NCBI GenBank assembly: GCA_002747015.1
Contig: NVXI01000020.1
Location: 1 to 33,168 of the forward strand
Direction: 5' to 3'
DNA length: 33,168 nt
Source: Zetaproteobacteria bacterium
Lineage (GTDB): Bacteria; Pseudomonadota; Alphaproteobacteria; Micavibrionales; Micavibrionaceae
Shown: positions 3,250 through 29,065 of the stretch, piece after piece
Position numbering within the stretch: the first letter of the stretch is position 1
Layout: each line of letters begins with the position of its first letter
Notes under the pieces: model-generated
Databases searched by the model: none
What the model saw: the letters and a program-made list of their open reading frames with translations, nothing else
What the model was told of the DNA's origin: nothing
Made by a program: the position numbers and the translations under genes

Positions 3250-3360
3250 ATGAACTCTACGCTGGATACAAGTTATATCGACAAAGGCCGTGATATAGGT
3301 TTTATTCAGGTGCAGCACAAAACTCAAAATAGCTATGAGGAGATCTCTTACATTAAATGA
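3250..3360 (+). CDS. 36-residue ORF translationally coupled to the radical SAM gene (tentative)
   Basis: An ATG at 3250 opens a 36-codon frame. Its TGA (3358-3360) overlaps the ATG of the radical SAM gene (3357-3359) in an ATGA arrangement. A Shine-Dalgarno-like AGGAG for the downstream gene lies within its last codons, 14 bases before the ATG. The peptide begins MNSTLDTSYIDKG and ends EEISYIK; it has no Cys and no signal peptide. No strong ribosome-binding site precedes its own ATG. It could be a translational-coupling leader, a small substrate peptide, or chance. I recognise no family. The exact stop/start overlap is the only reason to list it. Confidence 0.3.
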   Translation: MNSTLDTSYIDKGRDIGFIQVQHKTQNSYEEISYIK

Positions 3361-4298
3361 GCGTAGAGAACCAAAATACAAAATTTTCTGACCCTTATAC
3401 CACCGCTGAAGGTAAGCAGCGTGCCTGGGTGGATTTAACCGCGCTGAAAACGCTGTGGTTTAATACGGGGACGTTGTGCAATTTGGCTTGCGTGAATTGC
3501 TATATAGAATCAACGCCAAAAAATGACTCGCTTGTTTATCTCATACTGAGTGAGGTTGTAGAATATCTCGACGAAATCATAGCTGATAAATTGCCGACGG
3601 AGGAAATTGGTATCACTGGCGGTGAGCCATTCATGAACCCCGATATTATTCCGATCATGGAAATAATCCTCAAACGCGGGTTTAAGCTTTTAGTGTTAAC
3701 GAACGCCATGCGACCGATGATGAAATGCCAAGAAGACCTGTTGCGCTTAAAAGATAAATACGGCGCGCAAATGACGATGCGTATCTCTGTCGATCATTTC
3801 AAACGTAGGCTACATGAAGAGGAGCGAGGGGCGCGGTCTTGGGGGCCAATGATGAAGGGGTTGCAATGGCTTTCGGATAATGAGTTTACGATTGATATTG
3901 CAGGACGGACGCGCTGGGGCGAAAATGATTTAGAACTGCGCAATGGGTTTGGCGCGTTCTTCAAAGAGCATAATATTAGAATTGATGCGCATGACATAAA
4001 ACAGCTCATGTTGCTTCCTGAAATGGATGAGAATATTGAAGTGTCGGAAATCACCACGGCCTGTTGGGATATTCTGAGTGTCAGCCCCGATAACATGATG
4101 TGTGCGTCTTCCCGTATGGTTGTGAAACATAAAGGTGATAAGAAACCATCCGTTATGGCCTGCACGCTTTTGGCCTATGATCAGCAATTTAATATGGGAA
4201 AAACCTTGAAAAAGGCTTCAAAGTCAGTTCATCTTAATCACCCGCATTGCGCCAAATTCTGTGTACTTGGTGGTGGAGCGTGCAGTGTCTCAGAGTGA
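3357..4298 (+). CDS. Radical SAM enzyme with C-terminal cysteine-rich region, linked to the arsenosugar-like cluster
   Basis: This 313-residue cytosolic enzyme has the radical SAM cluster motif CNLACVNC (Cys41, Cys45, Cys48; CxxxCxxC), then the SAM-binding GGEPF at about residues 87-91 and the LTNAM strand. The C-terminal third carries further cysteines, including TACWD, MMCAS, MACTL and a terminal HPHCAKFC...GACS set (Cys298, Cys302, Cys309). These could bind an auxiliary iron-sulfur cluster as in SPASM or twitch domains. It converges on and overlaps by 9 bp the TIGR04282 glycosyltransferase, which links it to the arsenosugar-type genes. It does not look like classical ArsS, the radical SAM enzyme usually paired with ArsM, so it may replace it or do another step. 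The substrate is unknown. The radical SAM assignment is secure; the pathway role is inference from context. Confidence 0.88.
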   Translation: MSVENQNTKFSDPYTTAEGKQRAWVDLTALKTLWFNTGTLCNLACVNCYIESTPKNDSLVYLILSEVVEYLDEIIADKLPTEEIGITGGEPFMNPDIIPIMEIILKRGFKLLVLTNAMRPMMKCQEDLLRLKDKYGAQMTMRISVDHFKRRLHEEERGARSWGPMMKGLQWLSDNEFTIDIAGRTRWGENDLELRNGFGAFFKEHNIRIDAHDIKQLMLLPEMDENIEVSEITTACWDILSVSPDNMMCASSRMVVKHKGDKKPSVMACTLLAYDQQFNMGKTLKKASKSVHLNHPHCAKFCVLGGGACSVSE

Positions 4299-4925
4299 CG
4301 AAACCCAGTCTAAAAGATTCTGTTGTTCGTCGCTCATTGCCTCAGGCATTTCTGTTTTAAGTTGTTGGAGATCATTTTGTGTATCAACATCGGTTAAAGG
4401 TTCAAGGTGACAGGGTTTTGAGGATAATAGTCCTTCCAGTGTTTGACGTGTTTGTTTGGTGCTCCATGGTACAGCGCTCCAGATATGTCGGTTAACAGGA
4501 ATCCGTCCACCAAACAAATAATAACCACCATCGTTTGCGGGTCCGAGTACAAAGTCATGGGTGTTTAAGGCCTCAATAGAGCGCTCAAGAATGCATGGCG
4601 AGAGTTGTGGTGCATCAGCACCAATCAAAATCACGCGATCATGATTAGAAAGCAGATGGTTATAAATATAGTGCTGGCGTTCACCCAGCCCCCCTTCACC
4701 AGTGTAAATTGTTTCGAATGCTCTCCAGAGAGGATTGTTCAGCCCTTCTTGCTCACCCACAGCCCAGAATACCTTTGCGTGTGTTTGCTTTACTGTTTTC
4801 TCGATAGCTTTTAAGCTGTGGATATAAAATTCTTCAGCTTTTTCTTTACCTATTCCTGCTGCAAGACGCGTTTTTAATGGCGACAGGCTAGGTGTTTTTA
4901 CAAAAATGGCAAGTGCTGTGCTCAT
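4290..4925 (-). CDS. TIGR04282 family arsenosugar-type glycosyltransferase (GT-A fold, DUF2064)
   Basis: The 211-residue soluble protein has the nucleotidyl/glycosyl-transferase-like layout of the family. KTPSLSPLKTRLA lies near the N-terminus (residues 10-22), GADAPQL at 102-108 (metal/nucleotide site), GPANDGGYYLFG at 128-139 and VPWST at 152-156. TIGR04282 proteins are annotated as arsenosugar-biosynthesis-associated because they recur beside ArsM and radical SAM genes; their exact reaction is not established. I start at the ATG at 4925 because it overlaps the upstream TIGR04283 stop as ATGA and has GAGG about 9 bases upstream; an ATG 33 bases earlier is in frame but lies inside the neighbour. 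It is the last gene of the minus-strand train, and its 3' end overlaps the convergent radical SAM gene by 9 bp. Confidence 0.85.
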   Translation of the reverse strand: MSTALAIFVKTPSLSPLKTRLAAGIGKEKAEEFYIHSLKAIEKTVKQTHAKVFWAVGEQEGLNNPLWRAFETIYTGEGGLGERQHYIYNHLLSNHDRVILIGADAPQLSPCILERSIEALNTHDFVLGPANDGGYYLFGGRIPVNRHIWSAVPWSTKQTRQTLEGLLSSKPCHLEPLTDVDTQNDLQQLKTEMPEAMSDEQQNLLDWVSSL

Positions 4926-5515
4926 AATTTCTGCCTCAATAATATCATCAACTGCCATTGCCGCAATAGTGTGAGCTTAGCCCACCCGTATGCTTTATAT
5001 TGTCGGGAACTGGTTTGCAGCTTTGAGGGGATGTTTTGCAATTTTATGCGTGCTTTTTTTGCATGGCGCACAAACAGTAAATCTTCACCATATGGTGCAT
5101 CTTCAGGATAACCACCAAGATCTTCAAATCGTTTTTTAGATAGGCACAACCCTTGATCACCATAGGGCAGATAAAAATAATGCGAGCGTATATTTGCGCC
5201 CCATGCGTTTAATTTCAGTCGTCCAGATATATCGAATGCGAGATCAAAATAATGTAGAGCATCGGGGCTTTGTTGCAGTGATTTTTCAAGGGCCACGAGA
5301 TTTTCCTTTGTCACACGGCTATCGGCGTGAAGGAACCAAAGGAACTCATTTTGTGTTTTTACAGCACCAGCATTCAGACTTTTTGCGCGCGTTCCCTCGG
5401 ATGAAATAATAATTTCAGCGCCGCAGTTTTTTAAATCATTCAGCAATTGTTCATGCGTTGTTTCATCCGGTGCAATGGGAATGATTATACTAATGTTTTC
5501 AAGCATGAAGTGCAT
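4922..5515 (-). CDS. TIGR04283 family arsenosugar-type glycosyltransferase (GT2)
   Basis: This is a 197-residue family 2 glycosyltransferase. Features seen are the ISIIIPIAPDE start of the Rossmann-like half, a DXD-equivalent LHADS (HADS at 63-66), GDQGLCLSKKRFEDLGGYPE around 119-138 (acceptor loop) and GEDLLFVRHAK around 143-153. These match the TIGR04283 pattern, a family recurrent in organoarsenical loci and presumed to transfer a sugar. There is no signal peptide or clear membrane helix; the C-terminus (LMILLRQKL) is mildly hydrophobic. The start at 5515 is chosen for length, but an in-frame ATG nine bases downstream would also fit. It lies 25 bp downstream of arsM, and its stop overlaps the next gene's start, implying co-translation. 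Confidence 0.85.
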   Translation of the reverse strand: MHFMLENISIIIPIAPDETTHEQLLNDLKNCGAEIIISSEGTRAKSLNAGAVKTQNEFLWFLHADSRVTKENLVALEKSLQQSPDALHYFDLAFDISGRLKLNAWGANIRSHYFYLPYGDQGLCLSKKRFEDLGGYPEDAPYGEDLLFVRHAKKARIKLQNIPSKLQTSSRQYKAYGWAKLTLLRQWQLMILLRQKL

Positions 5516-5540
5516 CCATCCATTGGTTACGCATAAGAAT

Positions 5541-6332
5541 TTAGCAGCAACCCTTCTTTTGACCTTTGAAGGCTCGCACTGTAATCGAGTAAAAATCGAT
5601 ATGCCCGATCTTTGCTTTTATATTCGGATCATCAAGTGTCATTTCGCGCTTGGAAATATAATCAATACCGCTCATACCACAATCTGCCATTATGGATTCA
5701 AAATCGGCAATTGTTAGGGCACCGCTGAGGCATTCACCAAGTAATACCGGATCACGTTGCAATTCTTCAGAGATTTGTTGTCCGGCAAAAACATCGGCGA
5801 AATATAACTCTCCACCAGATTTTAAAACGCGGGCAATCTCTTTAAATACCGCAGGCTTGTCGGCAGATAAATTAATGACGCAATTGGAAACGATCAAATC
5901 AATATCACCGTCTTCAATTCCAATAGATTGCAGATCTTCGATATAGCCTTTTTTGAATTCCACATTGGCTGTTTTGTAACCAAATTTATCCATGTGCCAG
6001 TTAATATGGTCATTCGCCACGCAGAGCTGCTCATCGGTCATGTCGACACCAATAACGCGGCCCTGTTCACCGACAATCTGGCTTAACACATAGACATCGC
6101 GGCCTGTACCGCAGCCCAGATCCAGAACAACAGAACCTTTGGAAATTTTAGGTAATGGTGTGCCACAACCATAAAACTTCGCTTGTACAGTTTCGTGAAC
6201 GTTTTTCAGAAGGTCTTGTATATGCGTCGGCGGAGCTTCGGATGGACAGCATGCGCTGGTTTTAAGATCCTTGTTCGTCTCCAGCACATTGCCGTAATAA
6301 TTCTTCACATCTTCTCTAATTGTTTTTGTCAT
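5541..6332 (-). CDS. arsM: Arsenite methyltransferase
   Basis: The 263-residue SAM-dependent methyltransferase carries the ArsM signature: YYG near the N-terminus, a CC pair (Cys28-29), KFYGCGTPLP (Cys56), SAM motif DLGCGTGRD (71-79), SNCVINL (Cys151) and GECLSGALT (Cys201). Spacings 28 to 56 and 151 to 201 equal those between Cys44/72 and Cys174/224 of the characterised algal ArsM, so the full arsenic-binding cysteine set appears present. It should methylate trivalent arsenic in the cytosol to mono- and dimethylarsenicals. The protein stops soon after the methyltransferase core with KKGCC; longer ArsM proteins have a further C-terminal domain, missing here. The terminal CC may be an extra metalloid ligand. 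Its ATG overlaps the upstream gene's stop (ATGA). Confidence 0.93.
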   Translation of the reverse strand: MTKTIREDVKNYYGNVLETNKDLKTSACCPSEAPPTHIQDLLKNVHETVQAKFYGCGTPLPKISKGSVVLDLGCGTGRDVYVLSQIVGEQGRVIGVDMTDEQLCVANDHINWHMDKFGYKTANVEFKKGYIEDLQSIGIEDGDIDLIVSNCVINLSADKPAVFKEIARVLKSGGELYFADVFAGQQISEELQRDPVLLGECLSGALTIADFESIMADCGMSGIDYISKREMTLDDPNIKAKIGHIDFYSITVRAFKGQKKGCC

Positions 6333-6775
6333 TCTTTATTTCCGGTCTTTGGTTTGTATTCTCTGTGACATTGCACGATTTTGGCGATCATTGCTGAATA
6401 TTTTTCAAGAACAAGATCTATATTCTCTTGTTCACCAGCTTTTGAAATATCGATTGCCAGATTATGAACAGCATTGTCGCAGAGTATGAAATCCTCTTTG
6501 CGTGGGCCAAGACGCTCAAACAAGTGGTGAAGGTCTTGCGTATCAATACCGGGATGGTTGGCAATGTCATGCGCAGAAAGGGTAATGGTAGGATAATCCT
6601 CAATAATGATAGCGTTGGTTAATTTGTGCATATTTTTGTTCATATTTCGCATGATCTCTATTATTGATTGCGTGATCTTACTGTTTTCATCGCCATGATT
6701 ATGTTCCTGTGCAATTCCGTAAGAGCTTATAAAGAACATGCCCATAAGTACGGTAGTTAAAGTTATAAGTTTCAA
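6329..6775 (-). CDS. Small exported protein, cytochrome c'/b562-like helical bundle (tentative)
   Basis: A 148-residue protein with an N-terminal signal peptide (MKLITLTTVLMGMFFISS, cleavage likely near residue 22). The mature part starts with a His-rich QEHNHGDE and is predicted all-helical. MRNMNKNMHK (42-51) resembles the first helix of cytochromes c', and VQCHREY near the C-terminus (Cys136-His137) resembles the heme-binding helix. However, a full CxxCH is absent: only one Cys precedes the His. A second Cys is at 99. It may therefore bind heme non-covalently, bind metal or metalloid, or be a heme-less relative. The start is a TTG at 6775; the first in-frame ATG would remove part of the signal peptide. 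It sits between the MerA-like gene (15 bp) and arsM (4-bp overlap), so it is clearly part of the train. Confidence 0.6.
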   Translation of the reverse strand: MKLITLTTVLMGMFFISSYGIAQEHNHGDENSKITQSIIEIMRNMNKNMHKLTNAIIIEDYPTITLSAHDIANHPGIDTQDLHHLFERLGPRKEDFILCDNAVHNLAIDISKAGEQENIDLVLEKYSAMIAKIVQCHREYKPKTGNKE

Positions 6776-6790
6776 TGTATTGTCTTTCTT

Positions 6791-8221
6791 TTAAAATGGT
6801 AACTTTTTTAACAATCTTACAATAAAGCGTGTCCGGTCACTAAACAAAGATGGCGTGAACCACGCACCTGCGGCACGTTTGCTGATCTCTCCCAGTGTCG
6901 GGTATGGCGCTATTATGCTGGTGATATCACCGATTTTCATACCCTTGCTCAGCGCCAGTGTCCAGAGGCCAATAAGCTCTCCTGCGCTGGGTCCAATAAT
7001 CGTTACGCCGAGGATTTTCCCCTTCTTCAGGCATGTGACTTTGATCATGCCCTCAGTACGGCGTTCGGATTGCGCCCTGTCATTTTCATCGAAATTCCAA
7101 GATATGATTTTAACACGATCCTTACCATGTTTCTCGATAGCCATCGCTTCGGTCAGGCCGACATTGGCCAGTTCTGGGTCGGTGTAAGTTACCCAGGGCA
7201 GGGCTGTGTAATCCACTTTAGCTGGTATTTTGAAGCAAATATTGCGAATAATAATTCCTGCGTGATAACCGGCGACATGGGTAAATTGCGGTCCGCCAGC
7301 GACATCTCCGGCGGCGAAGATATGTTTTTGTGAACTACGCAGGCGGGCATCAACCTTAATCCCTGAGCGATCATATTCAACATCTGCTTTTTCGAGATCC
7401 AGATCAGTATTAGGTATCCGCCCCGCAGCCACTAGAAGGTGTGAGCCTTCAACATTAAATTCTTTTCCATCTTTTTTGGCTGTGATAGAGACGCTGCCAT
7501 CTGCATGCGTCACGTTTTTAATACTGACATATTCGTATAACTCTATACCTTCTTCGATTAATCGCGTTCGTAGAATTTCTACCAGCTCCGGATCATCTTT
7601 GGGCGCAATTGGCCCCATATCCAATACGCTGACTTTGCTGCCAAGCCTTTTGTGAGCTTGTGCCATTTCAATACCAATCGGTCCGCCGCCAATAATTACC
7701 AGATGCTCTGGCTTTTGGCGCAGATCAAAAATATTTTCATTGGTAAAGACTTTGTCCGGTTCCAGCCCTTCGATCGGGGGAACAGAGGCGCGGGAGCCTG
7801 TCGCGATCACAAAGTAGCGCGCGCAGATTGTTTCATTACCGGCTTTCACCGTATGGGCATCAACGAAATGTGCAGCTTCGCGGATAACTTTAATGCCAAA
7901 TCCTTCAAATCGTTCCTGTGAGTCGTTGGGTTCAATCGCGGCGATAACATCGAACACATGGTCTTTTACAGCAGAAAAATCAATGTTAGGTTCTTGTGAT
8001 TTGATGCCAAAGGCATCACTTTTTCGAAATCCTTGTGCAACTTTTGCGGCTTGCAATAACGCCTTGGACGGGACACAGCCTGTATTCAAACAATCACCAC
8101 CCATCTCAGCTTTTTCAATCAGAACCGTGTTTAGACCAAGTTGTGCTGCGCCTGCCGCGACCGATAATCCACCAGAACCTGCGCCGATCACACATAGGTC
8201 AAATTGATTGTCTTTAGTCAT
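6791..8221 (-). CDS. MerA-like NAD(P)/FAD-dependent disulfide oxidoreductase
   Basis: The 476-residue flavoprotein belongs to the class I pyridine-nucleotide disulfide oxidoreductases. It shows an N-terminal FAD GxGxxG (IGAGSGGLS), the redox disulfide GGDCLNTGCVPSK (Cys44, Cys49), the NAD(P) motif IGGGPIGIE, an AAGDVAGG FAD contact and a dimerisation domain ending in PYPTLGEISKRAAGAWF. In that element a Tyr occupies the position of the usual catalytic His, as in mercuric reductase. It lacks the N-terminal HMA domain and the C-terminal vicinal cysteines of true MerA, so mercury reduction is unlikely. Genes of this type often accompany TVP38-family membrane proteins, as here, where the start overlaps the upstream fusion gene by 8 bp. 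In this locus a redox role toward a thiol-bound arsenical is a reasonable guess. Confidence 0.85.
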   Translation of the reverse strand: MTKDNQFDLCVIGAGSGGLSVAAGAAQLGLNTVLIEKAEMGGDCLNTGCVPSKALLQAAKVAQGFRKSDAFGIKSQEPNIDFSAVKDHVFDVIAAIEPNDSQERFEGFGIKVIREAAHFVDAHTVKAGNETICARYFVIATGSRASVPPIEGLEPDKVFTNENIFDLRQKPEHLVIIGGGPIGIEMAQAHKRLGSKVSVLDMGPIAPKDDPELVEILRTRLIEEGIELYEYVSIKNVTHADGSVSITAKKDGKEFNVEGSHLLVAAGRIPNTDLDLEKADVEYDRSGIKVDARLRSSQKHIFAAGDVAGGPQFTHVAGYHAGIIIRNICFKIPAKVDYTALPWVTYTDPELANVGLTEAMAIEKHGKDRVKIISWNFDENDRAQSERRTEGMIKVTCLKKGKILGVTIIGPSAGELIGLWTLALSKGMKIGDITSIIAPYPTLGEISKRAAGAWFTPSLFSDRTRFIVRLLKKLPF

Positions 8222-9635
8222 CGCGTTTTCCTTTATTTAGTGACCAATCATAGTTCATATATTGCAATTTTTTGTTCGTATTAAAACTCACATAGGACTG
8301 TAACCAACCCTTAACATCCCCATTATTGAAATCTTCAGAAAACCAGTCAAAAATTTTGCTTACATGCACAGTACCATCATTTTTTGCAAATCCTTTGCCT
8401 TCATTCGCAAGTGTTATCATCACTTGTTCATTAAGCTGCCTGTTCAGGCTTTTTGCCTCATAGGCCTCATCCCTTAAATCCGGGCAGGAGACAGAGGCGC
8501 AGTTAATAGCAAAGTGAATGCGCGGATCTTTCATTGAACGTAAAATCGCATGTTCAATCTTGTCCAGCGTATAAGCCTGCCCAGCAATAAGCCATTGATG
8601 TTTTTTCCATGGGGTTGTGAAGAAAGATCCCAGATTTTTAATACTCTCACGCTCTTCTTTTTTCACGATAAGATCAATAGTCAATAAATTATAGGCGTTG
8701 ATCCAAAAAGACATTTCCTCATTTTGAGTTTCAAAATCATTCGGGTTTGTTTGCGTTAAGCGCTTAATAGAGGCTGCATGACGTGCATCTTTTGCCCATG
8801 CATCGTAATCCACACCATTGTAGGTAATGCCGTTTTTCTCTGTCTTGTGAACATACTCTGATAGTAATTCATCGTAATCTCCAGCTTGCACGCTACTCGC
8901 AGCTAAAACTAAACTCAGCATAATCACGGCCAGATTTTTTCGTGTTTTAAATTGTTTATAGAGCGTTGGGATTAGTGCAAAAAATCCGAGTAATGCAAAG
9001 GCAAATAAGGTTTTCATGGACACTAAGTCCCCCAGACTTTCAATCTCTCCAAGTTGCTCTCCCAAATTTACAAAGACAAAGCTACCCGGCAGAATACCGA
9101 AGAAAGTCGTTAATACAAAAACACGCAAACGTACATTAAATAATGCCGGAATGATGTTGACTAGGAAGAATGGAAAGATCGGCACAAGACGCATAAATAG
9201 TAAGTATCCGGTGGCATTTTCCTTCATATTTTTTTCAACCCGTGCATACATTCCTCCTGCTTTTTCGCGCAATATTTTACCAAGAGCTGTCTTGGCAACA
9301 AGAAAGATAATGCTAGCGCCTAGCGTTGCTGCGCTCACAACATAAAGCGTGCCTAGCCATTTGCCGAACATAAAACCGCCAGTGAGGGTTAAAATCGTTG
9401 CAACCGGTAGTGATAACGCTACCGCTAAAACATATACTCCGATAAATCCCATAGCCGATAAAACTGGATGCATTGTGACCATTTCAAATAAATCACCTTT
9501 ATGTGTTTGCAAGGCGTCTAGGCTCAATTTTTCATGCAGACCAGTTGCAAAAGCAACAGCCATAAGAGACGCAATAATAATCAATGGTAAAAAGCGTTTA
9601 AGACGCAGGGTTTTGTTTGATTGTTCTTCAGGCAT
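8214..9635 (-). CDS. TVP38/TMEM64 (VTT) membrane protein fused to a DUF547 domain
   Basis: This 473-residue protein joins two families that are usually separate. Residues 15-225 form a VTT/DedA-like membrane domain with LPVATILTLTGGFMFG and the hallmark FMRLVPIFPFFLVN. Residues about 255-473 form a DUF547 domain with SFWINAYN, HFAINCASVSCPDL and IFDWFSEDF. Between them, KTRKNLAVIMLSLVLAASSV (231-249) followed by QAGDY looks like an ordinary signal peptide with an Ala-x-Ala-type end. This suggests that DUF547 was once a separately exported protein whose start codon was lost; here it would place the domain in the periplasm. Functions of both domains are poorly known (VTT proteins include lipid scramblases and candidate transporters). 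It overlaps both neighbours by 8 bp, so it is co-translated with PiT and the MerA-like enzyme. Confidence 0.87.
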   Translation of the reverse strand: MPEEQSNKTLRLKRFLPLIIIASLMAVAFATGLHEKLSLDALQTHKGDLFEMVTMHPVLSAMGFIGVYVLAVALSLPVATILTLTGGFMFGKWLGTLYVVSAATLGASIIFLVAKTALGKILREKAGGMYARVEKNMKENATGYLLFMRLVPIFPFFLVNIIPALFNVRLRVFVLTTFFGILPGSFVFVNLGEQLGEIESLGDLVSMKTLFAFALLGFFALIPTLYKQFKTRKNLAVIMLSLVLAASSVQAGDYDELLSEYVHKTEKNGITYNGVDYDAWAKDARHAASIKRLTQTNPNDFETQNEEMSFWINAYNLLTIDLIVKKEERESIKNLGSFFTTPWKKHQWLIAGQAYTLDKIEHAILRSMKDPRIHFAINCASVSCPDLRDEAYEAKSLNRQLNEQVMITLANEGKGFAKNDGTVHVSKIFDWFSEDFNNGDVKGWLQSYVSFNTNKKLQYMNYDWSLNKGKRDD

Positions 9636-10737
9636 ATAATTTCCCCAACATATAAATTATGGCCGCAAATATCGCCGCAACTGGTGCAGTTACAAGCCAT
9701 GCGAACAACATGGTTTTTACAGTTTTCATGTTTAGTCCCTTATGGTTTGCAATTCCAACGCCCATGATTGAGGAAGATGAAACATGTGTTGTCGAAACCG
9801 GTAAACCAAAACGACTAGCTCCGATCACTAAAAATGCAGAAACAAGGTTAGCCGAAAATCCCTGTTCATGGTTCATCTTTGTGACATTAAACCCGAGAAC
9901 TTCCGTTATGTTTTTACCGGCTATCCAGCTTCCTGCTCCCATTGCTAACGCCCCCCAGAAAAACAGCCATACTGGAGCGACTAAATTGTCCAATATCAAA
10001 AAGGGCATAACGATAGCAATCAGTTTCGGAGTATCGTTGAGGCCGCGGGAAAATGATAAAAGACCACTGGTAAACCAGTGCATATTATCAACCGACAGAG
10101 TAATGCCATGGGTAAGTCCTGCCTGCGGGCTATCACAGGCACAGACAAGACAATCTTTCAGCGGTTCCTGCGTTCTGTTGTTTGTATGAATAAGGGTGAC
10201 TTTGGGAACGGGCGTTAAGCATAACCTTATGCAGTTTATCATTTTTGCCGTTTTTTCTAACGTGGGCGTTAAAAACCACGCCAAAATAATTGCCATAAAC
10301 GGGCTAGCCAAAAGTGGCAAAGCAATCTTTTTCATGATTGTTGGCCAATCAATACCCTGCATACCATAAGCCATAAGCCCTCCGCCAACAAGGCCACCAA
10401 CAACGGCATGGGTTGTTGATACCGGCCATTTGCGCCATGTAGCCAAGGATACCCAGAGAATAGGCGCGATGGATATTGCCAATGCCAGGGGCATGTAAAA
10501 CTCATGCGAGTCCACATAAATACTGCTGGTTATATTTTTGATGATCGCGCTGCCCCAAAACAGTCCCGCCAGAGCACCAGCCATTGTCCAAAGTGTTCCC
10601 CACGCAATTGCACCGCGCACAGATGTCAATCCTGCTCCAGCTAATGTGGCTATGCCCTTGGACACGTCATTACTGCCATTGGCAAAAGCCAGAAAAAATA
10701 AAAGCACTGCCGCCAGTGCTGTCAAACAAAAGTCCAT
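9628..10737 (-). CDS. PiT family inorganic phosphate transporter
   Basis: The 369-residue inner-membrane permease has the duplicated PHO4 signature: FANGSNDVSKGIATLAG near the N-terminus with PVSTTHAVVGG, and the C-terminal repeat SRGLNDTPK with GLPVSTTHVSSSSIMGVG. About ten hydrophobic segments are visible, with a cytosolic loop around residues 165-200 containing several Cys. PiT carriers import metal-phosphate with protons and also let arsenate in, which fits its place as first gene of a train containing arsM. I start at the ATG at 10737; a TTG four codons upstream is in frame, and neither has a strong Shine-Dalgarno. The 3' end overlaps the VTT-DUF547 gene by 8 bp. No Pho box was identified by eye in the 170-bp divergent upstream region. 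Confidence 0.92.
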   Translation of the reverse strand: MDFCLTALAAVLLFFLAFANGSNDVSKGIATLAGAGLTSVRGAIAWGTLWTMAGALAGLFWGSAIIKNITSSIYVDSHEFYMPLALAISIAPILWVSLATWRKWPVSTTHAVVGGLVGGGLMAYGMQGIDWPTIMKKIALPLLASPFMAIILAWFLTPTLEKTAKMINCIRLCLTPVPKVTLIHTNNRTQEPLKDCLVCACDSPQAGLTHGITLSVDNMHWFTSGLLSFSRGLNDTPKLIAIVMPFLILDNLVAPVWLFFWGALAMGAGSWIAGKNITEVLGFNVTKMNHEQGFSANLVSAFLVIGASRFGLPVSTTHVSSSSIMGVGIANHKGLNMKTVKTMLFAWLVTAPVAAIFAAIIYMLGKLYA

Positions 10738-14703: not shown

Positions 14704-15447
14704 TTATGTATGAATAAGGCCTAAAGATATGGCCTTGGAAATGGCAACAATCCTATTATTGGATTTTAGTTTTTTGAAAATATTTCTAAAATGGTAGTTA
14801 ACAGTAAAACTTGAGATAGTCATAATATCCGCAATATCGTTATCCGATTTGCCTTGTGCAGCCCAAGTTAATACTTCTTTTTCTAAGAAAGACAAAAACA
14901 AGTTGTCATATTCTTCATTTTTTATTTTCGTGACCTGTTGTAATCTTTGGAATACTAAATAAAAGTGGTTACAATAAGCAGTAATGATATCACGAGTTTT
15001 AGCATCATAGTGACAAGCATCCGTCTTTTCTGTGCTTGCTAAGCTGACCCCTGCAAATCTATGGGGTCCCCATAAAGGAGTAAATGTGCCATTAAAAAGC
15101 TTGGCTTCTGATCCAAGATTAAGACATACCTTTTGTTTCTTAGTCATGGACATTTTTCCCTCCATTTCATCCCATGAGAAGGTACCTAAATTTTGCCGAC
15201 CATAAGTCAAAACCGGATCAAATCGATCAAAGTCATTTTCAAAATAATGGCTTAACCAATCGTCAGGATAATTATTAATATATCCAACACCGGCCTTCAG
15301 ACCCAGATTATTATGATTAGAAAGAAGACAGAATGCCATTCTATCATAGCCAAGTTTAGCTATTTCCTTAAGAAAAATATTGACCAGCTCTTCCGCAGTA
15401 CTTACTGAAGCAGTACTCTCAACAAACCCTCGGAAAGAAATCGACAT
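14704..15447 (-). CDS. luxR: LuxR-family acyl-homoserine-lactone receptor/regulator
   Basis: The 247-residue regulator has an autoinducer-binding domain (about 15-165) and a LuxR HTH (about 185-245; LTWAAQGKSDNDIADIM and TVNYHF). All six canonical ligand-pocket residues are present at a constant +7 offset from TraR: Trp64, Tyr68, Asp77, Pro78, Trp92 and Gly120. It should therefore bind an acyl-homoserine lactone and then DNA. The cognate synthase lies 1.1 kb away on the opposite strand, separated by a dioxygenase gene on the same strand as luxR. A long inverted repeat lies just upstream (15464-15502). The start at 15447 has no obvious Shine-Dalgarno. The family assignment is very secure. Confidence 0.93.
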   Translation of the reverse strand: MSISFRGFVESTASVSTAEELVNIFLKEIAKLGYDRMAFCLLSNHNNLGLKAGVGYINNYPDDWLSHYFENDFDRFDPVLTYGRQNLGTFSWDEMEGKMSMTKKQKVCLNLGSEAKLFNGTFTPLWGPHRFAGVSLASTEKTDACHYDAKTRDIITAYCNHFYLVFQRLQQVTKIKNEEYDNLFLSFLEKEVLTWAAQGKSDNDIADIMTISSFTVNYHFRNIFKKLKSNNRIVAISKAISLGLIHT

Positions 15448-15537: not shown

Positions 15538-16437
15538 TCATGCTGCTTGCAGAGATTTTCTGTGTTCTTCGAGAATCTTGAGAACGTCATTGGGAATGAA
15601 CTCCCTGAACTCCTTGTTTACAATATCTTTATTCTGCAAAATCTCAATAGGATCTCTGCCTTCTATCTGACCTAAATTAGGTTGATGTACAAAATATCCT
15701 AAGAGACGTTGTAAACGCTCGGGAAGAGTTTTCGCTAAGCCTTGCGGAACCGCTAAGTATGAGTTTTCAGATTGTCGTAACCACCCTAAAGAGTAGCTGG
15801 TTACCATTCCTGTTCTTGGTTTAAGTGTTTTATTTGCTCCGCCACAATGAAGCAGAGAACCAAAATATATTAGCACAGAGCCAGCGGGCATCGCACCTTG
15901 AATTATTTCATGTTCTTTTGGTTGACGTTCTGGCATTAACCCAACACGCTTCCATTTATGGCTCCCTGGAACAATGTGCGTTGCTCCATTTTCTTTAGTA
16001 AAGTCATCAATTGCCCACATACAATTAATCATCTTCTCATTATCAGGAAGTGAAAATGGGTACATAGGGTCATCAGGATGCATGACTTGCTGTGGTTCCC
16101 CAGGCCCGATCTGGATTGCTTGGGTAAGACTTAATTGGTAATCAGTACAACTTCGTAATAGAAACTCATCCATAACAGCCAAGACGATAGGATCAATCGT
16201 AAGATCTCTGCATATAGATGATTTAGAAATAAGAGAACTGATTCTTTTTGTTTTGTATCCGTAAAAGTCTCCAGAACAATTCGGTGTTTCTTCAAGATGA
16301 GGCTTTAGTTCATCTCTCAGTTTTTCCAGTTGTTTGCTGTTTATTGCATTCATAATTACAATACAGCCATCTTTTTCTAGAATTTTATTGATAATTTTAA
16401 TATCTACTTCTCGATCTACTTTTTGAACATTTGTCAT
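15538..16437 (-). CDS. PhyH-family Fe(II)/2-oxoglutarate-dependent dioxygenase
   Basis: This 299-residue oxygenase of the phytanoyl-CoA dioxygenase family has the metal facial triad HPD (His120, Asp122) and His197 (SLLHCGGAN), with Arg208 (KPRTG) as the likely 2-oxoglutarate clamp. GATHIVPGSHKW and PAGSVLIYFGS are family hallmarks. It would hydroxylate a small molecule in the cytosol. I choose the ATG at 16437 because AGGAGAG sits 7 bases upstream; the frame extends 13 codons further without a better signal. It lies between luxR and luxI, divergent from luxI across a 141-bp spacer with a lux-box-like palindrome, so quorum control is likely. Possible roles are tailoring the signal or making a quorum-controlled metabolite; the substrate cannot be read from sequence. 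Confidence 0.87.
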   Translation of the reverse strand: MTNVQKVDREVDIKIINKILEKDGCIVIMNAINSKQLEKLRDELKPHLEETPNCSGDFYGYKTKRISSLISKSSICRDLTIDPIVLAVMDEFLLRSCTDYQLSLTQAIQIGPGEPQQVMHPDDPMYPFSLPDNEKMINCMWAIDDFTKENGATHIVPGSHKWKRVGLMPERQPKEHEIIQGAMPAGSVLIYFGSLLHCGGANKTLKPRTGMVTSYSLGWLRQSENSYLAVPQGLAKTLPERLQRLLGYFVHQPNLGQIEGRDPIEILQNKDIVNKEFREFIPNDVLKILEEHRKSLQAA

Positions 16438-16498
16438 TTTGATCTCTCCTGTAAGTTTTAAAACATAGACAAACAATATCTGTATATCGCTTTACAAA

Positions 16499-16578: not shown

Positions 16579-17217
16579 ATGATTGAGCTTGTTGATATAT
16601 CTAGTGCATCAAATTTTGTAGGAAACCCCCTAGCCGAGCAACATAAACTACGATATAGATCTGTCATTGAGAGACAGAAATGGGATGTTCCTCATCACAA
16701 TGGGCTGGAATATGACGAGTATGATAACCCTGCGGCAAAATATCTGATTTATAGAGATAAGCTAGGAATAGCGCGTGGAGTTAGTCGGTTTTATTCAACG
16801 CATCTTCCCTATATGTTAGAAGAAAAATTTCCTCATTTTGTCACTAAAATACAAATTCCAAAGGACGAAAAAATTTGGGAAGGATCAAGATATTGCATTG
16901 ATCACAAAATATCGCCTAAGACTCGGCAAGATATAATAAATCAATTAGGCATAGCATATCTTGAAATGGGTCTGAATGCAGGGATTGATGGGATTGTTGG
17001 TCTTACTTATCCAGTCTTTTGGAAAAAACTATTTATCGATTTGGGATGGCCTATAGAGTTTATCGGTGATGTAACAAAACTTGACAATGGGCATAAAGCG
17101 CAAGCTGCCTGGCTTCCTGTTAGCCAAGCTATTCTTGATAACGTTCGTGAAGTAACAGGAATATATGAAACTGTATTATATCTAGGAATCAATAATGACA
17201 ATAAAAAAGCAGCATAA
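16579..17217 (+). CDS. luxI: Acyl-homoserine-lactone synthase (LuxI family)
   Basis: The 212-residue enzyme makes N-acyl-homoserine lactones from SAM and an acyl donor. Conserved LuxI positions are visible: Arg25 (LRYR), Trp35, Asp46 and Asp49 (EYDEYDN), Arg70 (VSRFY), and Glu101/Arg104 (WEGSRYCI). Thr at the fatty-acyl selectivity position near LTYPVFWKK (about residue 143) hints at, but does not prove, a 3-oxo acyl product. AAGGAGA 7 bases before the ATG is a strong ribosome-binding site. Its 3' end overlaps the following 119-aa gene by 23 bp, implying coupled translation. The lux-box-like dyad 59 bp upstream suggests autoinduction through the neighbouring LuxR. Confidence 0.94.
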   Translation: MIELVDISSASNFVGNPLAEQHKLRYRSVIERQKWDVPHHNGLEYDEYDNPAAKYLIYRDKLGIARGVSRFYSTHLPYMLEEKFPHFVTKIQIPKDEKIWEGSRYCIDHKISPKTRQDIINQLGIAYLEMGLNAGIDGIVGLTYPVFWKKLFIDLGWPIEFIGDVTKLDNGHKAQAAWLPVSQAILDNVREVTGIYETVLYLGINNDNKKAA

Positions 17218-19369: not shown

Positions 19370-22300
19370 ATGCTTTCATTTATACAATCTGTAAAAATAC
19401 ATGCGGTTTTGGTGTTGTTTGTTATGTTTTTTCCCAGCTTGGCCTATGCGCAAGATTGGGATTTAAATGGAGACTGGGAATTACGGCAAGGCGAAAATGT
19501 AAGGGCAATGCCGACGCCTTTATCTATCGTCGTTGAAGATAAAACGATAAAAGGGTTCCTGAAAAAAGAAGACCCTCAGTTTGGCTATGCTGCCGGAGAA
19601 ATGGTTTTACGGGGGAGCATAGAGAATGGCAAAATTACAACGCTTGAAAAACTCGCCAAGCCTAGGGGCGATAAATGTCCTGCTCTTGAAGGGTGGAAGG
19701 TTATCCATGATATCAAAATACGGGATGATGGTGGCGAAGAAAAACCTAAAATAGCGATCATCAAAAATCTTAAATCTAACAAGATAACAGAGGTTAAACT
19801 TAACAGTTGGATTCCGCAGGCCAATGTCATTCAGGGGCAATGGAAAGCCGGTGTTTTTTTACAAGAAACTTGCCTTAGTTTTGATAGGGATACTGATTTT
19901 ATATTGGTGCGTGTTGAGGAAGACGCTACCAATAGTACAATAGGTGTTACGACACTTGACCCGCAAGTCCCATTGAAATCTGTTGAGCTTCTTGGTCTTA
20001 TGCGTGTGAAAGTGGAATTTGAAAATGGCCGGCTTTTTGTATCCCGGCCTGTGCTTATTAGTGTTCCAAATGCGAAACCTCATAAAGAATTTGCAGAGGT
20101 GCATGCTTGTCCTGATAGCACGCTCTCTATTTCTGTGAAAAATAAGAATATTACAATTCCCGTTATTCCTTCGGCGGATCGTAGAGCCCCTAAGCCGTGT
20201 CATCAAGGCGAGTTTTCTGCGCTTGATTTTAGTCCGGTTGGTGAAACAAATATCACGTTGGACCCGCAAGCCGGTAAGGGACGTCCTTTAATAATGAGGT
20301 TACGCGACAGTGAAGGAAACGCATTGCCTAATGAACCTGTCATCTGGAAAATTGCAACATATGAGGACGCTGTTTTTGAAACCTTTACTGATGAAAAGGG
20401 AGAGGCCCGGTTAGATTTTACTGTGATAGAGAGAGGACATTTTCAAGCTGTCGTTGACGGTTTGCCAGCAGGGCCAATGATTTTTTCAAGCACTTCCATC
20501 ACTATAGATGTTTTTCTAGGGGAACCCATTGTCGGCGCGCTTTCTGCTAATTCAAAGTACAGATTTACGGTTGATTTGGTCAAGCCGACAACGATCGAAT
20601 TTTTTGTAAGCGGCGGTGCAAAAATCACTAATTACCTTAAAGATGATCAGAAATTTTTTATAAGATTGCGGCTCGGGGACTCGGATAAGCAAAAATATAG
20701 AGGAACAAGTGAACTTACTGTTAAGCTGACGGGGAATGATGGAAAAAATACGCAGGATGAAGATACATTGTCCCCTTCTGTCATAAAGACAGTACCCGGT
20801 ATTTATGAAAGTCGGGTGCGTACAATTGCTACGGATTCCGATGTTGCCGTACGAACAGGAGAAATTGTCGCCCCTAATGGTGGGATTATTACAGCTTCTT
20901 TTAATGGTGTAGCTCTATCTGTTCCGTTTTATAAAACAGTTTGGCATGGCGCTGTTATCGCTGCTGAAGCGCGGCTTGAAATTGCCAGACTCATGGTAAA
21001 TATTGCTTCGCAGCAAGATAATATTCCCGCAGAATTAAAGAAAGCCTTACAATTAAAATCGAATTTGGTTACGACGGCGGATCAATGGAAGACAATAGAG
21101 CATCCTTCGCGCCGTATGCGTGCGGTCATTGCCAATACGTATGCTGATTTACTGGAGGCGCCTGTCTCTGCGTTGGGCAGTGTAAAACACACGACGCTTC
21201 AAAGCCACGCTATACCGCATTATTTACAAGATAGTACGACAGCACCTATTTTATTCAGAACAACAGGAGAGGCAACCAAAGTTGTCAATGCTATCAACGC
21301 AGAAGCACGGGCGATTCTCGGTATTGCGGCAAGTATTCCCTCCCAATTAACGCACCATGTTATCAATACGGCAAAAGGTCTTCCCGAGGGTATCATTAGC
21401 GGTGGTTACGTTCTCGCAACAGGTTGGACAGTTGATGGTCAAATTGCCACCAATATGGAACGTGTGGTGGGGGCCATTGATGTATTGACCATGGTTGGAG
21501 GAACAGCGGTCGTCGGAAAATTGTCTTCATTAGGGCGTTCTGCCCGAGCTTTAAAACTAAGAAAAGCAGCTAAAGCAAAGCCGAAGGCAAGTGGACGATC
21601 AGGAGGGCCTGCTACATTTGCTTCTGAGGCCAGAGCGGGAGGTGGGTCGTTAAATCCCAAACCCTCTTCTAGTGTAGTCAAAAAAGCACTTGAACCTGCC
21701 GATATTCCTCGCGGTACCAAAAAGCTTGAAGATGCAACTCGGAGACTGGAAAATTCGCAAGGGTGGGTAGAGCATTGGGCAGGAGATATTGGTCGCTTTG
21801 AAACTAAGCTAAGTAAGCTGGAAGGTGAGTTAAAAGCATTACAAAAGAAAAGAAATGCAGCCGCTTCGGCTAACAGAGGGACTTTGGCCGTAACAGATCA
21901 AATTATAAGCAAATGGAGCCATATACAAAGCACTAAGAAATCAATCGTGATCCGTAAAGGAAAAGTGTCGCATTGGAAAGGTGTTTTAGATAGAGCCAAC
22001 TTTGATATCTCACGTATCACAGGAAGAAATTTATCGTTGAGACAGTTAGAGAAATTGAAGCAACAAGGGAAGCTACCGGCTGCGACGGATCGTATTCATA
22101 ACAGGACAGCATACGGGCAATATGAAGGTCAGCTCAATAAAGCCTTAGCCGGCGAGGGCTATACTCCTGGGTACGGCATAACTCTAGATGCACCGATTCC
22201 TTCTTCTCTTGGCAAAGGTTTCGGTGCAACAGCTAAGCGTGGCTGGCGCGGTCATACGAAAGCTCCCGTTATGGATCATATAAATAAAACGACATTTGAT

Positions 22301-22609
22301 ATGGCCGATTCTAAATATTATAATATTGCTGATGATGTTTCTGATTCTGTAGCAAAACAAGTGGCGCGTGAAATTAATGAGACAATAGAAAAAGGCAGAG
22401 CTGTACAAATTAAAGAGCTGGGTAAGAAGCTTGGTATTACAGATAGCAGTAAACTCTGGCGGGAAGTTTGTAAAAGAAAAATTACAATATATACCCCTAG
22501 GGGCTTGCCCAGAAGGGTTAAGGATATGATTCGTAAGTTGCAGGGTCCCCATTCCGGTCCAACAATTAAGTTTAAAGTGGTTGAGGCTGATTTTATGTCT
22601 TGGCGTTAG
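19370..22609 (+). CDS. Large exported protein with Ig-like and toxin-like modular layout (1079 aa)
   Basis: A very strong AAAGGAGG precedes the ATG, and a signal peptide ends in LAYA before QDWD (residues 28-32). Residues 30-285 are beta-rich with several cysteines. About 287-370 resemble a bacterial Ig-like domain (NITLDPQAGKGRP, GNALPNEPVIWKI, FTDEKGEARLDFTV). About 640-722 are Ala/Gly-rich and hydrophobic (GAIDVLTMVGGTAVVGKLSS), like the pre-toxin segment of polymorphic toxins. A basic linker follows, then a coiled coil at about 784-875 and a compact C-terminal domain at about 910-1079 containing PVMDHINKTTFDMADSKYY. No known toxin family is recognised, and no immunity-like gene follows. 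It may be a surface effector or a structural exported protein. Modular architecture is clear; function is unknown. Confidence 0.7.
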   Translation: MLSFIQSVKIHAVLVLFVMFFPSLAYAQDWDLNGDWELRQGENVRAMPTPLSIVVEDKTIKGFLKKEDPQFGYAAGEMVLRGSIENGKITTLEKLAKPRGDKCPALEGWKVIHDIKIRDDGGEEKPKIAIIKNLKSNKITEVKLNSWIPQANVIQGQWKAGVFLQETCLSFDRDTDFILVRVEEDATNSTIGVTTLDPQVPLKSVELLGLMRVKVEFENGRLFVSRPVLISVPNAKPHKEFAEVHACPDSTLSISVKNKNITIPVIPSADRRAPKPCHQGEFSALDFSPVGETNITLDPQAGKGRPLIMRLRDSEGNALPNEPVIWKIATYEDAVFETFTDEKGEARLDFTVIERGHFQAVVDGLPAGPMIFSSTSITIDVFLGEPIVGALSANSKYRFTVDLVKPTTIEFFVSGGAKITNYLKDDQKFFIRLRLGDSDKQKYRGTSELTVKLTGNDGKNTQDEDTLSPSVIKTVPGIYESRVRTIATDSDVAVRTGEIVAPNGGIITASFNGVALSVPFYKTVWHGAVIAAEARLEIARLMVNIASQQDNIPAELKKALQLKSNLVTTADQWKTIEHPSRRMRAVIANTYADLLEAPVSALGSVKHTTLQSHAIPHYLQDSTTAPILFRTTGEATKVVNAINAEARAILGIAASIPSQLTHHVINTAKGLPEGIISGGYVLATGWTVDGQIATNMERVVGAIDVLTMVGGTAVVGKLSSLGRSARALKLRKAAKAKPKASGRSGGPATFASEARAGGGSLNPKPSSSVVKKALEPADIPRGTKKLEDATRRLENSQGWVEHWAGDIGRFETKLSKLEGELKALQKKRNAAASANRGTLAVTDQIISKWSHIQSTKKSIVIRKGKVSHWKGVLDRANFDISRITGRNLSLRQLEKLKQQGKLPAATDRIHNRTAYGQYEGQLNKALAGEGYTPGYGITLDAPIPSSLGKGFGATAKRGWRGHTKAPVMDHINKTTFDMADSKYYNIADDVSDSVAKQVAREINETIEKGRAVQIKELGKKLGITDSSKLWREVCKRKITIYTPRGLPRRVKDMIRKLQGPHSGPTIKFKVVEADFMSWR

Positions 22610-22750: not shown

Positions 22751-24316
22751 CTAGGCTGCGTTTATAATAGTTATATTTTTATTTAAAGACCTTCGGTGTT
22801 CTTCCCTTTTATCAAATAAATAGGTGCCAAAATTATTTATCAATAATGAAACGAGGCCATTATATTTTTGATGCTCGGGTTTTCTTGAATCATAGATAAT
22901 TCTGTCTTCGTATCCTGTGATCCAAAGTGCCTCTGGATTTCGTTTGGCAATAATTAGGTCACCTTGTGTTCGTGCCTCATGCGGGGAGCGATGTGATTTG
23001 AAAATCACTAGGCCATCCCCTAATAATTCCTTTACCGCAACTTGTAATGCCATGGGTAACAGATCAAAGTCAGTGGTGTTATCTGTGATTGGATCAAGCA
23101 CACTGACGACTTCTATCTTCCCCCATTCTGTTGACATAGAAAAGCGGGAGCGCGCTGTATCTGATAGACCTTTCATTGCGTTATTATGGATGCGCCACGC
23201 CTCTTCAACGGGAAGAGAGAACGCTTTATGGCCTTCTATATCTCGGCTTTGGAATATATATTTGGGGCGAATACCCATGCGCCGACATTCTTCATGTAAA
23301 ATTCGCAAGTCCTGCTCTTTATCGTTCACTCTTAGGATTAAAGGCGTTTGATTTTCTATTGTAACAAAGCTTAAGCTCAGCATGTTTTCAACAGCCGCCT
23401 TCGAAACATCCATCCATTTATAGCCAGGTCCATTTTCATTCGGGATGTAGTTATTATTTTCATCGCGCTCCAAAAATTCATCAGGGTGAGAGAAATGTGA
23501 CACGATATAAAGATGCATATGAGGGTACTTTTCGTGGATAATACGGAATGTATCTGCCATCGCTTTGTCAAAACGTTCTGGTCTGAATGCAATTTCTTTT
23601 GTGCCGAAGCGCAAGATGCTCACGCCAGCCTCACCAGCGGCAACTGCAAATTTGTATAGGGTACGGTTTGGCAGAACCATGATATCTCCACCAGACAGTA
23701 GTAGCTCACGAATAGGGTAGCGACGCTCTCCTGTGGATGGATCAATGCCACCATTTTTTTCTAACGTGTTATTATAATTTAGAATGTAATCTCGTAGCTC
23801 TTCTGGGCGAACACTGATTTTTCCGGTGTCCTTGTTAAATAAATCAAGACGATAACAATACCGGCAGTGCGCCGAGCATGTGGGGGAGGCATATCCCAAA
23901 ACAATTTCATCATATTTGTGCAGTAATTTACCGTGTAGGCTATTGCTGTTTGGTGTGAAACCCATTTGGTTTCCGGGGTCTTTTGCCCCTTCCATGCTCA
24001 AGGTTTCATTTAATCTGGGAAGGATCAATGCTGCGATAGGTAGGCTTGGTGGCATTTTAGGAACAAGAATATTATTATCTTGATCAACCAGTTCTTCCCC
24101 CATAACAAGTGCTTGATAGTGAGGATTTGTACCAAACATCATGCGTTTATCAATGCCTGTTCTTTTCATTTCGGCATAATCATCCGCATCATAAATATTA
24201 CGTAATAATTCATCAACGCGACTATGTGAAAAGCGTCCACGCAAAGGTCTGACATGCTTCATTTTTGTTTTGGGAATATCAACTCCGCGACTAGATATAA
24301 TTGTATTATTATCCAT
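22751..24316 (-). CDS. Lysine 2,3-aminomutase (KamA)-like radical SAM protein
   Basis: The 521-residue protein has the radical SAM motif CSAHCRYCYR (Cys147, Cys151, Cys154), LLSGGDIMVLPNRTL (SAM-binding GG and the KamA-like strand), LRFGTKEIAFRPER and MGIRPKYIFQSRDIEGHKAF, all typical of the KamA family. KamA is about 420 aa and uses PLP bound to a lysine in a Gly-rich PGGGGK-type motif. I find no such motif; the corresponding C-terminal part instead contains DGLVIFKSHRSPHE and DLIIAKRNPEALWITGYEDR. It is thus probably a divergent relative with another substrate or cofactor arrangement. GGAG 7 bases before the ATG supports the start. It is monocistronic, and its upstream region contains a hairpin and a 19-bp palindrome. 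Confidence 0.85.
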   Translation of the reverse strand: MDNNTIISSRGVDIPKTKMKHVRPLRGRFSHSRVDELLRNIYDADDYAEMKRTGIDKRMMFGTNPHYQALVMGEELVDQDNNILVPKMPPSLPIAALILPRLNETLSMEGAKDPGNQMGFTPNSNSLHGKLLHKYDEIVLGYASPTCSAHCRYCYRLDLFNKDTGKISVRPEELRDYILNYNNTLEKNGGIDPSTGERRYPIRELLLSGGDIMVLPNRTLYKFAVAAGEAGVSILRFGTKEIAFRPERFDKAMADTFRIIHEKYPHMHLYIVSHFSHPDEFLERDENNNYIPNENGPGYKWMDVSKAAVENMLSLSFVTIENQTPLILRVNDKEQDLRILHEECRRMGIRPKYIFQSRDIEGHKAFSLPVEEAWRIHNNAMKGLSDTARSRFSMSTEWGKIEVVSVLDPITDNTTDFDLLPMALQVAVKELLGDGLVIFKSHRSPHEARTQGDLIIAKRNPEALWITGYEDRIIYDSRKPEHQKYNGLVSLLINNFGTYLFDKREEHRRSLNKNITIINAA

Positions 24317-29024: not shown

Positions 29025-29065
29025 GTTTATATCACGGCGTATAACAGTTGTATCAGGAGAAAAAT

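What the first reader, a model, noticed from the sequence alone, without database searches (positions are those of the whole stretch)
3357..10737. Arsenosugar-type cluster with a non-ArsS radical SAM enzyme and an unusual redox/membrane set
ArsM, TIGR04283, TIGR04282, PiT, a MerA-like flavoprotein, a VTT-DUF547 fusion and a small exported protein form one train with 4-8 bp overlaps at most junctions. The radical SAM gene converging on the train has an extra C-terminal Cys set and does not resemble classical ArsS. The gene content fits organoarsenical synthesis, but with a different radical step and with redox/export functions that standard arsenosugar pathways do not include. It may make a distinct arsenical or arsenolipid. 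The family links are established; the pathway is inference.
Basis: partly seen in the sequence, partly recalled or inferred. Interest (0 to 1): 0.75.

Follow-up and report, generated by a model that had tools for sequence, protein, structure and literature searches.

The report
Arsenosugar-type cluster with substitute radical enzyme
This bacterial gene cluster looks like a pathway that builds arsenic-containing sugars, but the known key enzyme (ArsS) seems to be replaced by an unstudied, widespread radical enzyme that almost always travels with one of the pathway's other genes.

Summary
The gene train is real. The radical SAM protein (3357-4298) is not ArsS: 53 bits against a cut-off of 300. 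It belongs to an unnamed, conserved family with six invariant C-terminal cysteines (26 of 26 aligned).

The family behaves like a stand-in for ArsS. In 299 sampled genomes of one phylum, 17 have it; all 17 have the pathway marker TIGR04283 and none has ArsS, which 114 others have. In 198 genomes of the Sulfitobacter family, 99 have both it and TIGR04283, 1 has it alone, 12 TIGR04283 alone, 86 neither.

In relatives an MTAP-type phosphorylase gene lies within 6 kb (21 of 80 loci), and the TIGR04282 protein is predicted to fold like CofC-type guanylyltransferases. Proposed: adenosylation of arsenic, adenine removal, nucleotide activation, glycosyl transfer. The gene pattern is shown; the chemistry is inferred.

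Against arsenic as the general substrate: 16 of 77 genomes with this enzyme have a detectable ArsM. New variant of a known kind.

The parts
3357..4298 (+). Radical SAM protein, 313 aa; CX3CX2C at C41/C45/C48, C-terminal C236, C249, C269, C298, C302, C309; proposed ArsS stand-in
   Evidence: PF04055; TIGR04167 53.4 of 300 bits; NF049973 76.1 of 380; these Cys invariant 26/26; AF2 mean pLDDT 84.7, SPASM/twitch-type matches
4290..4958 (-). TIGR04282 protein (DUF2064), CofC-like nucleotidyltransferase fold; likely start at about 4925
   Evidence: 138.9 bits, over cut-off 134; AF2 mean pLDDT 93.7; fold matches
4922..5515 (-). TIGR04283 family glycosyltransferase (GT2-like)
   Evidence: 139.9 bits, under the curated cut-off of 182, only NCBIfam family matched; tree
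5541..6332 (-). ArsM-type arsenite methyltransferase
   Evidence: NF008823 188.6 bits (cut-off 263), NF040538 161.8 bits (cut-off 500); Cys pattern
6329..6775 (-). Small protein with signal-peptide-like N-terminus (by eye), function unknown
   Evidence: no NCBIfam or Pfam match at 1e-3; relative in L001 at 54%
6791..8221 (-). MerA-like FAD/NAD(P) disulfide reductase with CxxxxC (C44/C49), no C-terminal vicinal Cys pair
   Evidence: TIGR02053 380.2 of 454.45 bits; NF004991 439.9 of 620; Cys list
8214..9635 (-). VTT domain fused to DUF547
   Evidence: PF09335 and PF04784; two neighbouring frames in L014
9628..10737 (-). PiT-type phosphate (possibly arsenate) transporter
   Evidence: PF01384, 244.2 bits

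Best explanation
The cluster encodes an arsenosugar-type pathway in which an uncharacterised radical SAM family takes the place of ArsS. Proposed order. (1) PiT and reductive steps supply As(III). (2) ArsM methylates it; the MerA-like reductase may keep the arsenical trivalent. (3) The radical SAM enzyme transfers the 5'-deoxyadenosyl radical to trivalent arsenic. (4) An MTAP-type phosphorylase removes adenine and leaves an arseno-ribose-1-phosphate; its gene lies in the module in relatives and was not found in this window. (5) The TIGR04282 protein, a CofC-like nucleotidyltransferase, activates the sugar phosphate or the aglycone phosphate. (6) The TIGR04283 glycosyltransferase joins sugar and aglycone. 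Shown by computation: family assignments, mutual exclusion with ArsS in the genomes tested, co-occurrence with TIGR04283, linkage to MTAP in relatives, a predicted nucleotidyltransferase fold. Inferred: every reaction and the identity of the acceptor.
For: In 299 genomes of one phylum the radical SAM is in 17; 17 of 17 have TIGR04283 and 0 of 17 have ArsS, while 114 of the other 282 have ArsS. Among the 185 genomes without ArsS, TIGR04283 is in 17 of 17 with the radical SAM and 28 of 168 without, Fisher p 2.4e-12. 74 of 77 genomes chosen for the radical SAM have TIGR04283; ArsS over the cut-off is in 0 of 27 and ArsS at E 1e-30 in 0 of 50. Within the family of G012: both 99, radical SAM only 1, TIGR04283 only 12, neither 86 of 198, p 1.7e-41, although the genes can lie far apart (738 kb in G012, about 31 kb in G552). 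MTAP within 6 kb in 21 of 80 loci, in at least four gene orders; two of these scanned and confirmed as MTAP-type. ArsM near the radical SAM in the window, L001, L003, L004 and in the more distant L171 and L172. An arsC-like gene next to it in L001 and L003 (L001 is 67.1 of 174.3 bits on TIGR02691). Among genomes without ArsS, ArsM is in 8 of 17 with the radical SAM and 11 of 168 without, p 3.7e-5. The TIGR04282 model matches CofC-type and phosphoglycerate guanylyltransferases. Some radical-SAM genomes carry TIGR04283 proteins that group among those of ArsS genomes.
Against: ArsM reaches E 1e-45 in only 16 of 77 radical-SAM genomes, and NF038099 reaches E 1e-30 in 5 of 77. In 13 loci from genomes where TIGR04283 is away from the radical SAM I recognised no arsenic gene beside it, and TIGR04282 in 6. 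The window has no MTAP match. 59 of 80 loci have no MTAP and 60 of 80 no TIGR04283 within 6 kb, some because contigs end. The C-terminal resemblance to ArsS does not exceed shuffled controls. Genomes in a sample share ancestry, so the p-values overstate independence. TIGR04282 and TIGR04283 carry 'arsenosugar' in their NCBIfam names; I saw no assay.
Confidence: 0.6

Rival explanations
1. The radical SAM, MTAP, TIGR04282 and TIGR04283 make a non-arsenic adenosine-derived glycoside in most hosts, much as HpnH and HpnG adenosylate a hopanoid and then remove adenine. ArsM was added only in the window's lineage and in the lineage of L171 and L172.
For: 61 of 77 radical-SAM genomes lack an ArsM at E 1e-45; the radical SAM is in 100 of 198 genomes of one family; no arsenic gene recognised beside TIGR04283 in 13 loci where it is unlinked; HpnH and HpnG precedent (passages of PMC12583986).
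Against: Exclusion with ArsS over the same marker; ArsM enriched; ArsS genomes also miss ArsM in 49 of 114; no HpnH among the 25 NCBIfam rows shown for the window protein.
Confidence: 0.25
2. The radical SAM is an unrelated neighbour, and the train on the minus strand works with an ArsS elsewhere in the genome.
For: It is on the other strand and convergent; no whole genome is held for the window, so its ArsS content is untested.
Against: ArsS was not found in 77 genomes that hold a relative (27 over cut-off, 50 at E 1e-30); linkage recurs in several gene orders; near-perfect co-occurrence within one family.
Confidence: 0.04
3. The MTAP neighbours only clear the 5'-deoxyadenosine by-product of the radical SAM enzyme, so they say nothing about the product.
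For: MTAP-type enzymes act on 5'-substituted adenosines in general (recalled); 4 loci have MTAP without the two glycosyltransferase-type genes within 6 kb: L010, L011, L033, L034.
Against: 15 of 80 loci hold MTAP together with both TIGR04282 and TIGR04283; no MTAP match beside ArsS in 20 loci.
Confidence: 0.3
4. An arsenic detoxification train without a glycosidic product: methylation, reduction and export.
For: ArsM and MerA-like reductase and PiT are present.
Against: Does not explain the nucleotidyltransferase, glycosyltransferase and MTAP that accompany the radical SAM elsewhere.
Confidence: 0.06

Closest known systems
ArsS (TIGR04167) arsenosugar clusters
   Same: TIGR04282, TIGR04283, ArsM, MerA-like and VTT genes recur beside ArsS; radical SAM cores related (profile comparison probability 98.3%)
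   Different: Radical SAM protein 53.4 of 300 bits; not found together with ArsS in the genomes tested; MTAP near this radical SAM in 21 of 80 loci, near ArsS in 0 of 20
Rv1681 family radical SAM protein (NF049973)
   Same: Best NCBIfam match, residues 32-217 only
   Different: 76.1 of 380 bits; no function known from a call
HpnH/HpnG adenosylhopane route
   Same: Radical SAM adenosylation followed by a putative phosphorylase that removes adenine (passages)
   Different: No HpnH match over cut-off seen; different acceptor proposed; nucleotidyltransferase added
Arsinothricin arsQML
   Same: ArsM plus a radical SAM enzyme making a C-As bond (passages)
   Different: ArsL is predicted to transfer 3-amino-3-carboxypropyl and is 428 aa with three conserved Cys according to the paper; no glycosyltransferases in arsQML
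CofC-like MM2497, Rv2983 and 3-phosphoglycerate guanylyltransferase
   Different: 14-18% identity; substrate unknown

Membership tests
ArsS (TIGR04167) | Score over the curated cut-off of 300 bits | tested here: not met
   53.4 bits; distant relative in L171 57.9 bits
ArsS (TIGR04167) | Radical SAM CX3CX2C motif | tested here: met
   C41, C45, C48 in 26 of 26
ArsS (TIGR04167) | Homologous C-terminal Cys domain | tested here: inconclusive
   Both have invariant C-terminal Cys, but the local profile score of 13.25 is not above 100 column shuffles (median 12.06, top 23.55); global mode scored 0.03
ArsS (TIGR04167) | Adenosylation of a trivalent methylarsenical | not testable with these tools
   needs an assay
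Arsenosugar gene set | TIGR04282 over cut-off | tested here: met
   138.9 of 134 bits
Arsenosugar gene set | TIGR04283 over cut-off | tested here: not met
   139.9 of 182 bits, only family matched
Arsenosugar gene set | ArsM over the curated cut-off of NF008823 (263 bits) | tested here: not met
   188.6 bits, still the best of 33 families; Cys at 28/29, 56, 151, 201, the pattern recalled for ArsM
MerA mercuric reductase (TIGR02053) | Score over cut-off 454.45 and C-terminal vicinal Cys pair (pair recalled) | tested here: not met
   380.2 bits; no Cys after residue 397
HpnH (TIGR03470) | Score over cut-off 225 | tested here: inconclusive
   Not in the 25 rows shown of 39 for the window protein; 25.2 of 225.05 bits for L171
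SPASM/twitch radical SAM fold | Partial barrel plus C-terminal auxiliary-cluster region | tested here: inconclusive
CofC-type nucleotidyltransferase fold (TIGR04282 protein) | Fold | tested here: met

The most novel reading that the evidence does not exclude
A second, unrecognised radical SAM family, present in 100 of 198 sampled genomes of the Sulfitobacter family and in other proteobacteria, has replaced ArsS several times in the TIGR04283 pathway. It works with an MTAP-type phosphorylase and a CofC-like nucleotidyltransferase, so the missing middle of arsenosugar synthesis (adenine removal, sugar activation, glycosyl transfer) is laid out side by side in relatives. In hosts without ArsM it acts on an acceptor other than home-made dimethylarsenite.
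Probability: 0.35. Interest if true: 0.82.

Novelty: new variant of a known kind. Interest (0 to 1): 0.62.

Why it matters
To my recollection, how arsenosugars and arsenolipids are made after the ArsM and ArsS steps is open. If this enzyme stands in for ArsS, many bacteria that would be scored as unable to make arsenosugars would have to be counted as possible makers. The linked MTAP and nucleotidyltransferase genes also give concrete, testable candidates for the next two steps.

Tried and rejected
Viral contigs: no match to the radical SAM patterns. PDB by sequence with the single protein: nothing; with the profile, 12 matches to the radical SAM core. C-terminal homology to ArsS suggested by eye (HC..C..G.GxC endings) was tested against shuffled columns and dropped. 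NF038099, the arsenosugar ArsM model, was tried as a second ArsM probe and found fewer, 5 of 77. Plasmids: one match, Roseomonas, annotated 'radical SAM protein'. Papers: searches on arsenosugar with ArsS, radical SAM, alphaproteobacteria and arsM, on 'arsenosugar biosynthesis', TIGR04283, and arsenosugar with methylthioadenosine phosphorylase listed no paper whose title or abstract start describes this family; I read passages of two and none of the others. The library holds open-licence PMC texts only. The main ArsS papers (Cheng 2021; Xue 2019) were seen only as references in those passages; Xue 2019 is not held. The first gene caller picked wrong frames in GC-rich loci (e.g. L056), so I went over to tblastn. 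The 'ArsS' protein queries came from wrong frames; in that output ArsS shows as weak 'rSAM' hits, and coordinates were used from then on. An earlier count said MTAP 20 of 80; one search gives 21.
Full report
What is there. The eight genes lie as described. The seven minus-strand genes follow one another with gaps of -8, -8, +15, -4, +25 and -37 bases. The last becomes about -4 if TIGR04282 starts where its relatives begin to align. The radical SAM gene converges on the train and overlaps it by 9 bases. Upstream of it, not part of the train, are a CitMHS/ArsB-like transporter (1539-2921) and a protein with a sub-threshold Usp match (668-1531).

Neighbourhood in relatives. Within 6 kb of the radical SAM gene, by tblastn (window excluded), lie TIGR04282 in 20, TIGR04283 in 20, an MTAP-type phosphorylase in 21, a metallophosphoesterase in 10, MerA-like in 9, a match to the VTT-DUF547 protein in 8 (L044 weak), ArsM in 4 (one of them, L034, at 28% and doubtful), arsC-like in 2 and PiT in 1. 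15 of 80 hold TIGR04282, TIGR04283 and MTAP together. Gene orders differ: convergent (L008, L026), co-directional with MTAP first (L002, L005-L007), glycosyltransferase-type genes first (L019, L023, L056), and radical SAM with MTAP but no such gene (L010, L011, L033, L034). Some contigs end close by, so these are lower bounds. Two MTAPs, the L001 arsC-like gene and the L017 phosphoesterase were checked by family scans; the L008 MTAP scores just under the TIGR01694 cut-off (268.3 of 274.85), the L013 one over it (279.8), and the arsC-like gene under its cut-off (67.1 of 174.3). More distant genomes (L171, L172) have radical SAM, MerA-like, ArsM, TIGR04282 and TIGR04283 in one stretch.

True ArsS loci as a control. 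I picked 20 of the 114 ArsS genomes to spread over the score list and fetched the surroundings. A MerA-like reductase is found in 7 of 20, in 6 of them with a VTT match, and ArsM in 9 of 20 (the same places appear). The L188 protein is one VTT-MerA-like fusion. MTAP was matched in 0 of 20; three of these loci are under 9 kb. So the redox and membrane genes are common to both kinds of locus, while MTAP, in this sample, marks the new kind.

Co-occurrence. In the same 299 genomes of one phylum: ArsS at E 1e-30 in 114, this radical SAM at E 1e-60 in 17, TIGR04283 at E 1e-25 in 147. All 17 radical-SAM genomes have TIGR04283 and none has ArsS; TIGR04283 is in 102 of 114 ArsS genomes and in 28 of the 168 with neither. 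Of 77 genomes reached from the 80 loci (L048, L078 and L080 left out), 74 have TIGR04283. ArsS over the cut-off is in 0 of 27 (each of these has a weak sub-cut-off match), and ArsS at E 1e-30 in 0 of 50. Because kinship could explain this, I repeated it inside one family (198 genomes, family of G012, the genome of Sulfitobacter dubius in L050): both 99, radical SAM only 1, TIGR04283 only 12, neither 86; Fisher p 1.7e-41. The two genes can lie far apart there: 738 kb in G012, about 31 kb in G552. ArsS is in 0 of the 80 of these genomes that I tested, 68 with the radical SAM and the 12 with TIGR04283 only. The p-values ignore remaining kinship. The search scores only the best first-look candidates in each genome, so single misses are possible.

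Evolution of the partner. In a quick tree of 93 TIGR04283 proteins (86 different; SH-aLRT only, many weak forks), the 68 rows from radical-SAM genomes fall into a window-type clade of 16, a clade of 36, a clade of 5, two lone rows and nine rows among proteins of ArsS genomes (L056 with its duplicate L205, L074 with L206, L203, L204, L208, L209, L221). The label needs at least 7 changes on this tree (shuffled mean 22.2); starred branches force 2. This fits more than one exchange of the radical SAM enzyme over the same pathway, but also strong clustering by lineage.

The arsenic question. For arsenic: ArsM near the radical SAM in the window and in two separated groups of loci; arsC-like genes in two; exclusion with ArsS; ArsM in 8 of 17 radical-SAM genomes against 11 of 168 with neither (p 3.7e-5). 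Against: 16 of 77 radical-SAM genomes reach the ArsM threshold, against 65 of 114 ArsS genomes. In 13 loci where TIGR04283 is away from the radical SAM it lies near genes such as an ABC transporter and a YgfZ-like gene (6 loci each, names by eye), TIGR04282 is near in 6, and I recognised no arsenic gene. I therefore hold the substitution for ArsS to be well supported as a pattern, arsenic as likely for this window, and arsenic as open for the family at large.

Noticed in passing
14704-15447 (-), 15538-16476 (-), 16579-17217 (+): A LuxR-like regulator (by eye) and a LuxI-type autoinducer synthase (PF00765) with a PhyH dioxygenase gene between them.
   Followed up: partly
19370-22609 (+): 1079-aa protein with a signal-like start, a sub-threshold bacterial Ig-like match and a long unassigned C-terminal part.
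   Followed up: no
24924-29024 and 29048-30004 (+): 1366-aa Sel1-repeat protein with EF-hand-like stretches, followed by a second smaller protein with Sel1-like repeats (by eye).
   Followed up: no
22751-24316 (-): KamA-like protein (by eye) with only a sub-threshold Pfam radical SAM match.
   Followed up: no
6329-6775 (-): The small protein ends in a QCHREY stretch that recalls a cytochrome c' haem site lacking its first cysteine (recalled); among the 80 loci one relative, in L001.
   Followed up: partly
L014, L016, L017, L027, L031, L039, L052, L058, L071, L076: A calcineurin-like metallophosphoesterase (L017 confirmed) with a cysteine-rich stretch lies within 6 kb of the radical SAM gene, in several loci right beside it: a possible further pathway enzyme.
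   Followed up: partly
28 genomes of the 299 and 12 of 198: TIGR04283 without ArsS and without this radical SAM at my thresholds: incomplete assemblies, misses or a third adenosylating enzyme.
   Followed up: no
L003:10907-12397: MsrA- and MsrB-like genes (by eye) sit between the radical SAM/arsC-like genes and TIGR04282.
   Followed up: no
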